A stretch of 64,000 nt of DNA, from positions 1 to 64,000 of the forward strand of contig JACJOC010000077.1 in assembly GCA_014695345.1 (NCBI GenBank). The letters run 5' to 3'. Position 1 is the first letter of the stretch, and each line of letters begins with the position of its first letter. This document shows positions 12,708-25,074 of the stretch, piece by piece. The translations under genes and the position numbers were made by a program. The notes under the pieces were generated by a model that did no database searches, was not told the DNA's origin, and worked only from the letters and a program-made list of their open reading frames with translations. Source of the DNA: Cyanobacteria bacterium FACHB-471. Its GTDB lineage: Bacteria; Cyanobacteriota; Cyanobacteriia; Elainellales; Elainellaceae.

Positions 12708-13647
12708 ATGACATCTTCCAACTGTTCACTATCAATCATGGTCGCTCGGACTGATGTTCCGTTTATGATGCATACTATTCCACATCAATTAAGAGTATGC
12801 AATTTCCCGTTTACCAACGGTTGCTAGCGGTTGATACTGCGCCCTTATCGGGTGACAAAGTAAATCGTTCAGAACTTGGCACAATGGAGCAATTATGCAA
12901 CTATTGTAATCAACTGTTAGATTCAGATGTTGTTGATAAAGTTGTTGACATTGATTATTCAGAAAACCTTCATAGAAAAGTTTATCAAAAGCATTTTGGT
13001 CGGCAAATTAGGCAGACTCATAACTACAAAGGCTATCCAATCTTAGGTTCTCTTTTTGCTATTGAAGTAGTTGAAAGTGATTATTTGCTTCGTATAGACA
13101 ATGATATGCTGTTTCATCAAGAACCTTATTAAAACTGGATTGAAGAAGGTATTAAACTGCTGCAAAAAATCCGCAAGTTGTAGAGTTAGACCTTTGACTG
13201 GTCCGCCTGCAAAAGATGGCTCCCTTTACCAGAAAGTGCCCTTCAGTTCAGATCCTAATGACTTTTATCAAGTCAAATTCTTTAGTAGTCGAGCCTACTT
13301 AATTAGTCGCAATCGCTTTGACCAGCTTCTTCCGCTAAAAGTTCTATGGAAGACTTACAAGTGCAAATTTATGAATAGCTTGCCAACAGATATTCAAACG
13401 TTTGTAAATTATATCTTTAACAAAGGGAGCATTAGGTTCTTGGGAGGTCATGGTGTCACGCCGTTTAGAAGAGACAGAATACGTTCGTGCTGTACTCGGC
13501 TCTCCTAAAGCGTGGACACTTCATCCTATCGACCGTAAGCCCAAATTTATCAAAGCCCTACCTGATATCATCTAGAAAATTGAGTCAGGTTGGTATCCAC
13601 CGGAGCAGGGTGGACATTATGACCTGATTCTTAAATACTGGCTTTAA
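12708..13647 (+). pseudogene. Decayed glycosyltransferase-like gene
   Basis: Concatenating three frames gives one protein-like sequence of about 310 residues. It begins at ATG 12708 (MVARTDVPFMMHTIPHQL), continues in another frame with LLAVDTAPLSGDK and RIDNDMLFHQEP (a DXD-like acidic motif typical of GT-A enzymes), then RPLTGPPAKDGSLYQK, and ends with RRLEETEYVRAVLGSPKAW up to TAA 13645-13647. Lesions seen: a frameshift near 12797-12825, TAA at 13130, a shift in an A-run near 13165, TGA at 13195 plus a shift, a shift near 13450-13470, and TAG at 13573. With so many lesions it is a true pseudogene. The family is inferred and not certain. Its end overlaps the convergent sipA end by 4 bases. 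Confidence 0.75.
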
Positions 13648-13922
13648 TCTGAAGGACGCTCAAGAATGTGTTCGTCTGGAGTGGAGGAATTAGACGAAGC
13701 AGACGCTAATTCAAGATACTGGGTATCCATTAAAAACATTCCTTGGGAAAAGCGAACGCTCCAAAACCCTCCAGGACGCCGATTAATAACAATTCCTTCT
13801 TCGCCTAGGCTAATGACGTTGGGAGGACGCAGCATCGGCATGGGTTCAGCAGTTTTAACGTAAGGCGGAAGGGCAACCACTCGAACGCGATCGCCCACTG
13901 TAAATTCTTGGGATTCAGACAT
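13644..13922 (-). CDS. sipA: SipA, NblS-interacting regulator
   Basis: A 92-residue cyanobacterial/plastid-lineage protein. It has the SipA signature GDRVRVVALPPYVKTAEPMP, then LRPPNVISLGEEGIVINRRPGG and an SH3-like end (FLMDTQYLEL). In Synechococcus SipA binds the histidine kinase NblS and modulates light and nutrient-stress signalling. ATG 13922 matches the usual N-terminus better than an upstream TTG at 13955. The start is 17 bases after the cbiX stop, so the two are almost certainly co-transcribed, placing sipA downstream of a cobalamin riboswitch. The C-terminal Ser/Asn-rich tail is poorly conserved. Confidence 0.88.
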   Translation of the reverse strand: MSESQEFTVGDRVRVVALPPYVKTAEPMPMLRPPNVISLGEEGIVINRRPGGFWSVRFSQGMFLMDTQYLELASASSNSSTPDEHILERPSD

Positions 13923-13939
13923 AATATTCAGACGCAATT

Positions 13940-15013
13940 CTAAGGGGCTTGCCAAATCCTTTGATGATACTGCTCTGGGTTTGCGTAAGGATCTACATCT
14001 AGGTGACTATGTCCATGCTCATGACCGTGATGGTGATGGTGATCATGCCCATGCTGATGAGGTAGCTCATGTTCTCCCATTTGGGCGGTCGCAGCTAGCC
14101 GAAACTTGCACATTTCGCAGTTCATCTGTACTTGCCCTAACTGAGTTTCGATTTCTCGTTCTCTCAATACCGAAAACAACTGAGGATGCAACCCCATTTC
14201 TGGTAGACAAACCATCGAAACTTCAGGATGCTGCTCTTGTTGCTGTATGGTGGTGTCAAAGATCTTTTTGACTAATAAACCAGTAAACAGAAAGTAAGGC
14301 AGCACAATAATTCGCTTAGGTTGATACAGCAGCGCACGGCGAAAACCTTCTTCTAAGCGGGGGTGAGTAATTCCAATAAAACAGGTCTCAACCGTTTGGT
14401 ATCCGCTCCCCTCCCACACTATTCGCGCTAGTTTCGCAACATCGCCATTTGCATCAGGATCGCTGGAGCCACGTCCTACAAACAGCAGTACTGTATCAGC
14501 GCGAGAGATTTCTTGGGGGTTTTGGTCGGCTTGATCAAGCTGCTCTAGACGCGATCGCCATAGCTCTAAAATTCCAGGGGTAATCCCAAAATGGCGACCG
14601 TAATGGAAGTTAAGTTGAGGATGTCGCTGTCGAGCGCGATCCAGTTCGTTGGTAACGTCAAATTTGTTGTGTCGAGCTGCAAAAAGCAGCACAGGCAGCA
14701 CCGAAAGATCGGTATAGCCCTGCTCCACGCATTGGTCTAAGCTTTGTTGAATCGAGGGTTCAGTGAGTTCCAGGAAACAAGGAAAGACTGGTCGAGAAAC
14801 ATCAAGCGCTTGATAAGCAGTGGCAAAATCCAATAGGCTTTTCCTTCCATCTGCATCGCGACTGCCATGTCCAACTAGTAATAGTGGGCGGTTGAGGGGT
14901 AACGGAGGCAGCATGATTGACTGATCGAGGTTCACATCGGCATCGAAGGGTGTGCCTATTTTAGAATTTGCAGCGCTTGTTGGAGACAGAGTGTTGTCTG
15001 TCGAAATAGTCAT
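13940..15013 (-). CDS. cbiX: Sirohydrochlorin cobaltochelatase CbiX, long form
   Basis: Inserts Co(II) into sirohydrochlorin, the entry step of the anaerobic-type cobalamin pathway. The 357-residue protein has two CbiX-like domains. The first has [13 protein letters not shown] with the catalytic His49. The second has the equivalent [16 protein letters not shown] with Arg181 replacing His, so catalysis must rest on the first domain. A CXXC (NCEMCKF, ~295-298) and a His-rich tail (~310-336, more than 10 His) follow, probably for a metal cluster and metal binding or storage. ATG 15013 has GGGAG just upstream and lies directly behind a cobalamin riboswitch. sipA follows in the operon. Confidence 0.93.
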
Positions 15014-15019
15014 CGTTAA

Positions 15020-15204
15020 ACTCCCTTTCCTGTGCAGCGCAGGAAATAGAGTGAATAAGCAGCGGATTGGCGTTCTGGCTTCTAAAGAATAAAAGTGCTT
15101 TTCATCCTTTAGTTTACAGTTGCGGCACAGCGCCGGACTCGCACCGGACTTTCCCAATCAGGTTGCTGTTTCACGTGTGCCTCGTCATCTTATCCCAAGT
15201 GCCG
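15020..15204 (-). ncRNA. Cobalamin riboswitch in the cbiX leader
   Basis: Reading the minus strand, the leader contains the hallmark core GGGAAAGTCCGGTGCGAGTC with GCGCTGTGCCGCAACTGTAA, preceded by GAGGCACACGTGAAACAG and followed by the P13-like GAAGCCAGAACGCC. This is the cobalamin aptamer consensus. Its last element is a 7-bp hairpin (TTTCCTG/CAGGAAA, 15026-15046) abutting the Shine-Dalgarno GGGAG (15021-15025). There is no U-run, so control is probably at translation. The aptamer begins only ~15 bases after the stop of the upstream ABC gene. Confidence 0.92.
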
Positions 15205-15218
15205 ACATTTGTTTATAT

Positions 15219-17264
15219 TTATCGGGCGACTTCAAGCTCTTCTGGGCTTTGAATCCCTGTCTCGAAGGATTCTAAGCTCTTCAGAAGGTTGAGAGCTGAG
15301 TAATACGCTTCTTCGGTCAATTCGGTTTCTTCTTCCGGAGTATCTAACATGCCGTCAACCAGTAGCCTTAGAGAACCAATCATTGTGTTCAGGCGGGTCC
15401 GAATTTCGTAGGATGTTTTGGCGATCGCTTTTCGATCAGAGAGCCCTGACATTTGAGATTTCTCAGCAAACTGCATGGCACAGAGCCTCGCGTAATAACC
15501 GCTTGTCTGCATCAATTCTTCGTGATTGCCCAATTCCACAACTTGCCCCTTCTCCATCACCGCAATTTGATCTGCCTTACGAACTGTAGAGAGGCGGTGA
15601 GCGATGACTAGGGTTGTGCGATCGCGACTTAAATCATCGATTGCTTCTTGAACTAAACGCTCTGAAACTGAATCCAACGCGCTTGTTGCTTCATCTAAAA
15701 TCAAGATCTCTGGGTTTTGAAGTAGAGCCCTAGCGATCGCAAGTCGCTGGCGTTGCCCACCTGAGAGTAGTACGCCACGATCGCCAAGCTGAGTATCTAA
15801 GCCTTGAGGTAGGCGCAAAATAAATTCATAAGCATTTGCCCGCTTGGCAGCCTCAATAATTTCATCTTCTGTCACGTTTGATCGCGCGTAAGCGATATTG
15901 TTACGAACAGAATCATTAAAGAGAAAAGTATCTTGGCTGACAATGCCCATCGCCCTTCTTAGTGTGCGGACATCATAATCTCTTATGTCTGTACCATCTA
16001 TTTTAATAGAGCCTTCAACTGTATCGTAAAACCTCGGCAGTAGATCTGCGACAGTTGATTTACCGGCACCTGACGCACCAACTAAGGCGAGAGTTGTTCC
16101 CTTAGGAATCCAAAGGTTAATACCATTAAGAACTAAATTTTCATGTTCAGGATATTTGAACGAAACATTCTCAAAACTTATTCCCTTCACTAAATGTGAA
16201 TAAGGGATGACTCCATTAATAATAAAGTTTTTATTGTCACGCCTTAAAAAATCATCAACTAGATCGACACTAGCAATTGCGTTTGCGTAAGAATTGCGAG
16301 CACCATTTAATTGTCCAATAATCGGCATTAACCGAAATAAAACAAAAAGATAAGTTGACATCGTGTAAACCGAGAAAGAGCCAACTTGCTCTGCAAAAAA
16401 AACACGACTTAATAAGACGATGGAGAGTACAGCTACAATTCCACTCATTTCATTGATGGGTGGAACAGCAGCATTGTTTGCTTGAGATTTAAACTCAGCT
16501 CTCTCTCTTTCAAGAATTAGATGCTCTACTCTTTGATATTCTTGCTCTTCATTGGAAGTGGCTTTAATTAACCTGATGCCAGTTAAGACATCTAGCAGTG
16601 CGTTGGAGTAATCTCTTGAATTCTGTGCCAGTGCTTTTCCAAAAAACTTGGCGCGAACAATAGAAAATTGATTTGCCAGACCGACTAGAAGCAATAAACC
16701 AGTCGAGGCTAAAGTAAGTTGCCAGGATATCCGTATTAGCAATCCGATAAAAACTAGAATTGTTAATACGATTGTTAAAATATTAATTGAAATTTTAATA
16801 GATTGAGCCGTTCGATTAATCTCTTGTCCTATACGATTAATCAAATCCCCAATTCTCATTTGAGCATAAAAATCTAAGTTGACCTCTAAAAGTATTCGTA
16901 ATCCTTCTCTTCTTAAGCTATTCGTTAATAGTCTTGATAGATGACCGTTTGATAACGTACTCAAATAGCTTGCTAAGTTCTTTAAGAGAAGAGTTAGCAG
17001 AATAGCCCCGGTCATAGCGTATATACGAGATTCTTCTGGAAGGTTATTAAATGGTGCTAGAAGCCCCTCAACAAGCCCAGGAGAGCCTCCTCCAGTTAAT
17101 TCCTCTTCAGGGAGGTTTAAGCCCAAAAAATTCAGCAGAATCGGCACGATTAAAATGGTACTAATTCCATTAAAAAGCGCGCCGGAGAAACCTAACGCTA
17201 TACTTATGATGATCCAGCCAGGGTGCCGCTTTGCAAATTTTAGGAGCAATTTATGGGAGGACAT
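15219..17264 (-). CDS. ABC exporter (MsbA/HepA-like) with a kinase-like tail
   Basis: A 681-residue half-transporter that would work as a dimer. An N-terminal six-helix membrane domain (~residues 10-330) is fused to an ATPase domain with Walker A GASGAGKST (~394), signature LSGGQRQR (~500) and Walker B ILILDEATSALD (~520). It resembles lipid/glycolipid flippases such as MsbA and HepA. Unusually, after the ATPase a ~65-residue tail beginning SYEIRTRLNTMIGSLRLL reads as the DHp helix of a histidine kinase, with Tyr619 where the phospho-His should be, and no HATPase domain. It lies 143 bases downstream of a glycosyltransferase gene on the same strand. The substrate is inferred to be a glycolipid or oligosaccharide-lipid. 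Confidence 0.88.
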   Translation of the reverse strand: MSSHKLLLKFAKRHPGWIIISIALGFSGALFNGISTILIVPILLNFLGLNLPEEELTGGGSPGLVEGLLAPFNNLPEESRIYAMTGAILLTLLLKNLASYLSTLSNGHLSRLLTNSLRREGLRILLEVNLDFYAQMRIGDLINRIGQEINRTAQSIKISINILTIVLTILVFIGLLIRISWQLTLASTGLLLLVGLANQFSIVRAKFFGKALAQNSRDYSNALLDVLTGIRLIKATSNEEQEYQRVEHLILERERAEFKSQANNAAVPPINEMSGIVAVLSIVLLSRVFFAEQVGSFSVYTMSTYLFVLFRLMPIIGQLNGARNSYANAIASVDLVDDFLRRDNKNFIINGVIPYSHLVKGISFENVSFKYPEHENLVLNGINLWIPKGTTLALVGASGAGKSTVADLLPRFYDTVEGSIKIDGTDIRDYDVRTLRRAMGIVSQDTFLFNDSVRNNIAYARSNVTEDEIIEAAKRANAYEFILRLPQGLDTQLGDRGVLLSGGQRQRLAIARALLQNPEILILDEATSALDSVSERLVQEAIDDLSRDRTTLVIAHRLSTVRKADQIAVMEKGQVVELGNHEELMQTSGYYARLCAMQFAEKSQMSGLSDRKAIAKTSYEIRTRLNTMIGSLRLLVDGMLDTPEEETELTEEAYYSALNLLKSLESFETGIQSPEELEVAR

Positions 17265-24755: not shown

Positions 24756-25074
24756 GCAATTCACGCTATTCTGGAAGCTAGGCTGTATCTTCTAGAATTG
24801 ATTATTCTAGAAAAGCAAAGGTTTATTGCTCAATTCTTCAATTGAATAGTTAAAGCCAGAGACAGCAGGTGCTAGAAGCTTAATTGTCCTGCCGAGGTTT
24901 TTCCCAGTTTTTCGGTTTCTGAAACCTTTTTGTAGAGAGGGGGTTGCAAAAATCGAAAAGCTGAGAGAGCCCCGGCTAAATGTCCGGGGTTTTTGGCTTG
25001 TAAGGCTTTATCTAGGAAATTGGAAAGGGCAGCAGGTTTGGTCGTTTGTACCCGATTCAGGAGGTGAGAGATGT
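24756..25074 (+). promoter_or_regulatory. rplJ (L10) leader with attenuator-like hairpin
   Basis: This untranslated stretch fits the L10(L12)4-binding leader known upstream of rplJL in bacteria. It contains a terminator-like hairpin, CCCCGG / CCGGGG at 24970-24989, followed by TTTTT (24990-24994), and a strong Shine-Dalgarno AGGAGGTGAGAG just before ATG 25075. The hairpin 80 bases before the gene suggests attenuation. Upstream pairings (e.g. TCTAGAA repeats at 24790-24812) are less certain. No ORF here is credible. Confidence 0.6.

What the first reader, a model, noticed from the sequence alone, without database searches (positions are those of the whole stretch)
13644..15204. Cobalamin riboswitch may control sipA as well as cbiX
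sipA starts 17 bases after cbiX, and no promoter fits in that gap. A B12-sensing RNA would then set the dose of a regulator of the NblS stress kinase, linking cobalt/B12 status to light and nutrient signalling. I am not aware of this link being described.
Basis: inference. Interest (0 to 1): 0.55.

Follow-up and report, generated by a model that had tools for sequence, protein, structure and literature searches.

The report
B12 riboswitch–cbiX–sipA cluster in cyanobacteria
A vitamin-B12-sensing RNA switch sits directly before a cobalt-chelatase gene that is followed, here by 17 bases, by the light-stress regulator gene sipA; the order recurs in many cyanobacteria, but the switch looks built to control translation of the chelatase, and an effect on sipA is possible and unproven.

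Summary
On the minus strand an AdoCbl riboswitch (15179-15017; 51.0 bits, cut-off 50) ends 3 nt before the cbiX start codon, and sipA begins 17 nt after the cbiX stop. The order is not a one-off: sipA lies within 300 nt downstream of cbiX in 49 of the 80 best-matching named cbiX loci, 39 of them with riboswitch core motifs, and cbiX is directly upstream of sipA in 19 of 35 genomes of the window's family.

The inference is weaker. In 67 aligned leaders the switch ends in a conserved, covarying hairpin that buries the cbiX ribosome-binding site, so it should control cbiX translation. The window's leader shows no terminator and the genome has no Rho. Riboswitch presence is not significantly tied to sipA adjacency (p = 0.09, leaning that way), and 12 genomes carry riboswitch-cbiX with sipA elsewhere. 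One genus appears to have lost cbiX and kept sipA behind a cbiX remnant. Short-gap loci show weak constraint at the end of cbiX, perhaps a sipA start signal. Against my reading, an Anabaena B12-riboswitch operon does change its downstream genes. Verdict: real, recurrent order; B12 control of SipA unproven, about one in four.

The parts
15017..15179 (-). AdoCbl (cobalamin) riboswitch: aptamer plus expression platform
   Evidence: RF01482, 51.0 bits, gathering score 50
15020..15052 (-). 3' hairpin (13-position arms, 12 of them paired, 7-nt loop) that sequesters the cbiX ribosome-binding site; translational expression platform
   Evidence: MFE fold; conserved and covarying in 67 leaders; coordinates counted from the sequence
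15021..15025 (-). ribosome-binding site GGGAG of cbiX, 7 nt before the ATG, inside the 3' arm of the hairpin
   Evidence: sequence, fold
13940..15013 (-). cbiX, long (two-domain) CbiX-family chelatase with His-rich C-terminal tail, 357 aa
   Evidence: PF01903, 201 bits, 2 stretches
13964..13969 (-). TATCAT hexamer at the Tyr-His codons near the cbiX end, 41 nt before the sipA ATG; candidate -10 element of a sipA promoter (inference)
   Evidence: kept in 11 of 15 short-gap loci, 5.1 expected; post hoc, no transcript data
13923..13939 (-). 17-nt gap between cbiX and sipA, no Shine-Dalgarno-like motif
13644..13922 (-). sipA, regulatory protein SipA (NblS-interacting), 92 aa
   Evidence: NF045913, 131.6 bits, cut-off 100
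15219..17264 (-). upstream same-strand ABC transporter (MsbA/HepA-like, below the NCBIfam cut-offs), stop codon 39 nt before the riboswitch; possible source of read-through transcription
   Evidence: an ABC ATPase gene also precedes the switch in same-genus locus L144

Best explanation
The riboswitch is a cbiX regulator. When adenosylcobalamin (or the cell's own pseudocobalamin) binds, the 3' hairpin closes and hides the cbiX ribosome-binding site, so less cobaltochelatase is made: feedback on corrin synthesis. sipA lies directly behind cbiX in a recurrent gene order and is probably carried on the same mRNA in this organism, but its dose is set mainly by transcription, possibly including a start signal inside the end of cbiX, and only secondarily, if at all, by B12. 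Shown by computation: the parts, the order, the ribosome-site-hiding hairpin with covariation, the absence of a Rho match. Inferred: ligand binding, co-transcription, the internal sipA start, and the weak effect on SipA.
For: Hairpin: a Shine-Dalgarno-like site is paired in the MFE fold of 66 of 75 distinct motif-positive cbiX leaders (picked by pattern, in a few rows not the true site). All 67 leaders that could be cut cleanly (of 75) were aligned: 87.2% of cells pair, 31 cells changed on both sides against 12.1 in shuffles, covariation score 0.264 against 0.185, 0 of 500 shuffles as high for these three; sliding the partner by 1-3 columns gives 41-64% paired and scores up to 0.162. Window leader: no terminator-like site; the ribosome-binding site is followed by TTTAACG and the ATG. 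No Rho: best match 24.5 bits, cut-off 509. 12 genomes have a cobalamin riboswitch match directly before long cbiX with sipA elsewhere (7 at or above the RF00174 cut-off, 5 below), and 2 more (genus g57) with sipA about 4 kb downstream (coordinates). sipA is not directly behind cbiX in 85 of 101 non-f19 genomes and 20 of 20 f19 genomes examined. In genus g29 no long CbiX was found, and L055 has a decayed cbiX tail (AKLEDYHDRI-stop) before the sipA ATG. Short-gap loci: TATCAT 11 of 15, 5.1 expected, P = 0.001; codon conservation excess in the last 18 codons 0.11 against 0.05 and 0.03, permutation p = 0.02; own family 0.13 against -0.02.
Against: The order recurs in many genera, which hints at a benefit of joint expression, and riboswitch presence leans towards sipA adjacency (39/8 against 18/10, p = 0.09). 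In Anabaena a B12-riboswitch operon responds to cobalt as one polycistronic unit, with about 100-fold change of the first gene's mRNA (PMC10878165, passages), and in S. elongatus RNA polymerase peaks near the B12 riboswitch suggest pausing or termination (PMC3219970, passages). Two of the five pair measures do not stand out: pairs with a change on both sides 7 against 5.9 (157 of 500 shuffles as high) and pair types 21 against 17.1 (16 of 500); slid by +3 the both-side cells are 32, as many as observed. The terminator scan covered the window only; in a rough count 15 of 67 leaders hold a 5-of-8 T window between hairpin loop and ATG, none tested as terminators. The TATCAT and codon signals were looked for after seeing the sequences, with incomplete control for relatedness (own family TATCAT 7 of 7 against 7 of 12, p = 0.07). 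The promoter scan finds no sigma-70-like site on the minus strand of 13400-15500. 15 of 66 distinct adjacent loci have gaps of 30 nt or less, one an overlap, which favours coupling there.
Confidence: 0.6

Rival explanations
1. One reading: the switch sets the dose of both CbiX and SipA. B12-bound mRNA is untranslated at cbiX and is decayed or terminated early, or sipA translation depends on ribosomes arriving from cbiX, so SipA falls when B12 is plentiful and the NblS pathway senses B12/cobalt status.
For: 17-nt gap without a Shine-Dalgarno-like site; the order recurs in many genera; riboswitch presence leans towards sipA adjacency (p = 0.09); Anabaena precedent of an mRNA-level response in a riboswitch operon (PMC10878165, passages); polymerase peaks at the B12 and thiamine riboswitches in S. 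elongatus (PMC3219970, passages).
Against: Lack of a Shine-Dalgarno-like site is usual for sipA: pairing energy with the 16S tail of -4 or lower in 3 of 9 short-gap against 19 of 85 stand-alone starts. The sipA start is no less accessible in short-gap loci (mean unpaired 0.53, n = 20 including repeats of the same genome, against 0.50, n = 103; p = 0.18). Gaps vary from -4 to 253 nt, median 87, n = 66. No Rho match. Riboswitch-cbiX occurs with sipA elsewhere.
Confidence: 0.25
2. sipA is fully independent: its own promoter inside cbiX supplies nearly all sipA mRNA and the closeness to cbiX is historical only.
For: TATCAT and codon constraint in short-gap loci; cbiX remnant in genus g29; most sipA genes are not behind cbiX.
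Against: A 17-nt same-strand gap nearly always means shared mRNA in bacteria (general knowledge); no promoter match by the simple scan; the post hoc nature of the motif.
Confidence: 0.12
3. The Rfam match is spurious and cbiX has an ordinary leader.
For: 51.0 bits against a cut-off of 50; RF00174 sub-threshold at 21.8.
Against: The leader has the core motifs and the same hairpin as dozens of relatives, four of those scanned with Rfam at or over a cut-off.
Confidence: 0.02

Closest known systems
AdoCbl riboswitch, Rfam RF01482 (cobalamin clan CL00101), translational type as in E. coli btuB
   Same: Aptamer core, terminal hairpin directly before the start codon covering the ribosome-binding site
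   Different: Target is cbiX, and sipA lies behind it; ligand binding not tested
Anabaena sp. PCC 7120 cobalamin-riboswitch operon alr4027-btuB2-btuFCD (PMC10878165, passages seen)
   Same: Cyanobacterial cobalamin riboswitch at the head of a multi-gene unit; a further promoter proposed for later genes
   Different: The genes there serve cobalamin uptake or metal binding; here the last gene is a signalling regulator
CbiX-L cobaltochelatase with Fe-S centre and His-rich tail, as in Bacillus megaterium (PMC7689651, passages seen)
   Same: Two CbiX domains and a His-rich C-terminal region with a conserved CxxC
   Different: Cyanobacterial protein, activity and metal not tested here
SipA, NblS-interacting protein of Synechococcus elongatus PCC 7942 (Salinas 2007: title and citation seen in PMC7760821 passages; paper not read)
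   Same: Same NCBIfam equivalog family NF045913
   Different: Gene context: behind riboswitch-cbiX here; no paper in the library holds cbiX and sipA together

Membership tests
AdoCbl riboswitch RF01482 | covariance-model score at or above the gathering score | tested here: met
   51.0 bits against 50, whole model 1-149
AdoCbl riboswitch RF01482 | gene context: B12/cobalt gene directly downstream | tested here: met
   cbiX ATG with 3 nt between it and the match
AdoCbl riboswitch RF01482 | expression platform: terminal hairpin that hides the ribosome-binding site | tested here: met
   66 of 75 MFE folds; covariation in 67 leaders, three of five measures above all 500 shuffles
AdoCbl riboswitch RF01482 | selective binding of adenosylcobalamin | not testable with these tools
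   needs in-line probing
riboswitch-controlled operon including sipA | same strand, short distance | tested here: met
   17 nt
riboswitch-controlled operon including sipA | association of the riboswitch with sipA adjacency across genomes | tested here: inconclusive
   39 with and 8 without against 18 with and 10 without, p = 0.09; 12 genomes have riboswitch-cbiX with sipA elsewhere
riboswitch-controlled operon including sipA | common transcript and B12-dependent sipA level | not testable with these tools
   no transcript data for this organism
SipA family NF045913 | score over the equivalog cut-off of 100 bits | tested here: met
   131.6 bits
CbiX (PF01903), long form | two CbiX domains in one chain | tested here: met
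   2 stretches, 201 bits

The most novel reading that the evidence does not exclude
In many cyanobacteria with riboswitch-cbiX-sipA, a B12-sensing RNA tunes the amount of the NblS activator SipA by mRNA decay, early termination or translational coupling, so corrin/cobalt status feeds into light and nutrient stress signalling.
Probability: 0.22. Interest if true: 0.65.

Novelty: new member of a known kind. Interest (0 to 1): 0.36.

Why it matters
If SipA did follow B12, a cofactor-sensing RNA would feed directly into the NblS/Hik33 stress-kinase pathway. Even if not, the survey shows a recurrent cbiX-sipA order and a well conserved translational B12 switch on cbiX, and gives isolates in which the link is simplest to test: Oculatella sp. 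LEGE 06141 (gap 5) and Halomicronema sp. CCY15110 (gap 16), both motif-positive for the riboswitch.

Tried and rejected
Translational coupling signature: compared Shine-Dalgarno strength and start accessibility of sipA in short-gap, longer-gap and stand-alone loci; no difference worth the name. Homology of stand-alone sipA upstream regions in family f6 to cbiX ends: the blastn hits looked at (L026, L030, L032 and others) are short TTATGAGTTATGAG-type repeats, not cbiX remnants; only genus g29 shows what I take for a remnant, with modest scores (L055 E 3e-4, L059 E 1e-3, L057 no hit), best supported by the reading frame in L055. Terminator-type platform: rejected for the window, whose leader gives no terminator-like site and has TTTAACG between ribosome-binding site and ATG. 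For the relatives no terminator scan was run; the only figure is a rough T count, 15 of 67 leaders with a 5-of-8 T window between hairpin loop and ATG, so a terminator-type platform is not excluded in every relative. The motif search for the riboswitch core has about 5% false positives (118 of 2450 random windows, 7 of 123 upstream of stand-alone sipA, 3 of 120 antisense leaders), so its counts are approximate. Wrong core positions were picked at first for L140, L157, L174, L200, L214 and L242; re-placed the first four and dropped L214 and L242. Found on checking: the cbiX stop of L202 and the sipA start of L217 had been misplaced; corrected (L202 gap 217, L217 gap 26 with a probable frameshift in the contig). 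A first pair count used 57 of the 67 clean leaders, leaving out L160 and L161, which lack the usual platform, among others; the report uses the count on all 67. Literature: no paper in the library holds both cbiX and sipA as whole words; NblS with cobalamin gave 6 papers, of which I saw the listing only. The library lacks most subscription papers, so absence in print is not shown.

Full report
What is there. On the minus strand of the window, in transcription order: an ABC-transporter gene (17264-15219), 39 nt, an AdoCbl riboswitch (15179-15017), cbiX (15013-13940), 17 nt, sipA (13922-13644). The identities rest on Rfam, Pfam and NCBIfam matches. The Rfam match is barely above its cut-off (51.0 against 50; RF00174 gives 21.8, below its cut-off of 31.5). 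A second cobalamin riboswitch lies elsewhere in the genome (C23; 37.3 bits with RF00174), with a same-strand ORF for a protein with an FAD-binding oxidoreductase domain.

How the order is distributed. sipA was found in 138 of 291 phylum genomes; the listing shows 141 genomes of the window's class, 3 of them without a match. I fetched 100 sipA loci outside the picocyanobacterial family f19 and 20 of the 35 from it; two genomes with sipA near a contig end (G229, G231) were not fetched. With the window that is 101 non-f19 genomes: cbiX is directly upstream of sipA in 16 of 101, in 11 families of the handle table, and in 0 of 20 f19 genomes. Rfam finds a cobalamin riboswitch before cbiX in 10 of the 16 (5 at or above the cut-off of the matching family, 5 below it, the weakest 23.7 bits at E 0.058), and none in 6. 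In the window's own family cbiX is directly upstream in 19 of 35 genomes with sipA (36 searched); core motifs of the riboswitch are present in 18 of these 19, the nineteenth being cut by a contig end. In a scan that started from cbiX and so was not picked through sipA, the 80 best named loci (of 415 confirmed; some are the same genomes as in the unnamed set) have sipA on the same strand within 300 nt in 49, 500-1900 nt away in 8, and not found in the stretch in 23; motif-positive riboswitch in 39, 5 and 15 of these.

Whom the switch serves. If the riboswitch existed for sipA, it should go with sipA adjacency. In the 75 named loci with enough flank the table is 39 with and 8 without for adjacent, 18 with and 10 without for not adjacent, p = 0.09: no significant tie, with a lean towards adjacency. 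By comparing coordinates, 12 genomes carry a riboswitch match directly before long cbiX with sipA elsewhere (G125, G241, G083, G173, G027, G064, G171 at or above the RF00174 cut-off; G274, G079, G033, G042, G129 below it), and G179 and G283 carry it with sipA about 4 kb downstream on the same strand. The match table was cut at the weak end and the filters were strict, so these are lower bounds.

How the switch acts. The stretch from the core GCCAG to the cbiX ATG is strikingly uniform: TTCACTCTATTTCCTGCG-TGCACAGGAA-GGAG, mostly 3-13 nt, ATG. It folds into a hairpin whose 3' arm contains the ribosome-binding site; a Shine-Dalgarno-like site is paired in the MFE fold in 66 of 75 distinct motif-positive leaders (picked by pattern, in a few rows not the true site). 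67 of the 75 could be cut cleanly (dropped: L164, L182, L189, L198, L199, L208, L214, L242). On the alignment of all 67, 87.2% of cells pair, 31 cells have changes on both sides against 12.1 in shuffles and the covariation score is 0.264 against 0.185 (0 of 500 shuffles as high in each); sliding the partner lowers pairing to 41-64% and the score to 0.162 or less. Two measures are unremarkable: pairs with a change on both sides (7 against 5.9) and pair types (21 against 17.1, 16 of 500), and the +3 slide has as many both-side cells (32). The outer helix is weaker (75.5%) than the inner (96.8%). L160 and L161, two of the leaders without sipA nearby, have a different platform. Terminator evidence exists for the window only: no terminator-like site in its leader. 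For the relatives I made only a rough T count (15 of 67). This is the anatomy of a translation-controlling B12 switch such as btuB (PMC7689651, passages).

What follows for sipA. Repression at the cbiX start does not by itself stop transcription. The usual route from blocked translation to lost downstream mRNA is Rho (general knowledge), and this 99.87%-complete genome has no Rho match worth the name (24.5 bits, cut-off 509), in line with the literature on cyanobacteria (PMC13289151 and PMC3219970, passages). Two routes remain: decay or early termination of the whole mRNA, and translational coupling. For the first there is a precedent: in Anabaena the operon behind a cobalamin riboswitch responds to cobalt at the mRNA level as one unit, with a further promoter proposed for later genes (PMC10878165, passages), and S. 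elongatus shows polymerase peaks at its B12 riboswitch (PMC3219970, passages). For the second I found no signature: sipA lacks a Shine-Dalgarno-like site about as often when it stands alone, and its start is not more hidden in short-gap loci.

Does sipA have its own start? No promoter can lie within 17 nt, but one can lie within cbiX. In the 15 distinct loci with a gap of 30 nt or less, the Tyr-His codons near the end of cbiX read TATCAT, a -10-like hexamer, in 11; their own codon usage predicts 5.1 (P = 0.001). With longer gaps it is 20 of 51, without sipA nearby 15 of 36; Fisher test short against the rest p = 0.018. Codon conservation in the last 18 codons exceeds that of the rest of the gene by 0.11 in short-gap pairs, 0.05 and 0.03 in the others (permutation p = 0.02, made before the L202 and L217 corrections, which leave the short group unchanged); inside the own family 0.13 against -0.02, TATCAT 7 of 7 against 7 of 12, p = 0.07. 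The hypothesis came from looking at the data, relatedness is not fully controlled, and the consensus scan, which demands a -35 box, finds nothing on this strand of 13400-15500; I treat it as a lead. A natural experiment points the same way: in three genomes of genus g29 no long CbiX was found, and sipA is preceded by what looks like the remains of a cbiX tail, clearest in L055, where the frame reads AKLEDYHDRI-stop just before the sipA ATG; L059 is more degenerate and L057 gave no match. There sipA lives without cbiX before it.

Verdict. I put a real B12 effect on SipA in this organism at about one in four. Interest is moderate: the question is cleanly testable in named isolates.

Noticed in passing
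window 15219-17264 and L144:577-1623: An ABC transporter (MsbA/HepA-like) directly precedes the riboswitch on the same strand, 39 nt away here, and an ABC ATPase gene precedes it in the same-genus locus L144; the B12 leader may sit inside a longer transcript.
   Followed up: partly
L055, L057, L059 (genomes G089, G247, G091, genus g29): What looks like a decayed cbiX tail in front of sipA in a genus where the long CbiX was not found (clear in L055, degenerate in L059, no match in L057).
   Followed up: partly
L023 (G223:C263): Two sipA copies about 7.6 kb apart on one contig, one of them 198 nt behind cbiX.
   Followed up: no
L158, L159 (Myxacorys, same contigs as L197 and L203): Riboswitch-cbiX with sipA 4.1-4.3 kb downstream on the same strand; genes in between not examined.
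   Followed up: no
L003 (own genome C23:196842-197011): Second cobalamin riboswitch of this genome; the same-strand ORF at L003:797-1636 has an FAD-binding oxidoreductase domain (PF00970).
   Followed up: partly
L160 (G125) and L161 (G064), leaders of cbiX without sipA nearby: Riboswitch-positive cbiX leaders with a 3' platform unlike the common hairpin; they may work differently.
   Followed up: no
window 12797-13508: Region downstream of sipA holds short plus-strand ORFs; the one tested (12797-13132) has no Pfam match, possibly a decayed gene.
   Followed up: no
window 24838-24922: Rfam L10_leader match (RF00557, 51.9 bits, gathering score 44).
   Followed up: no
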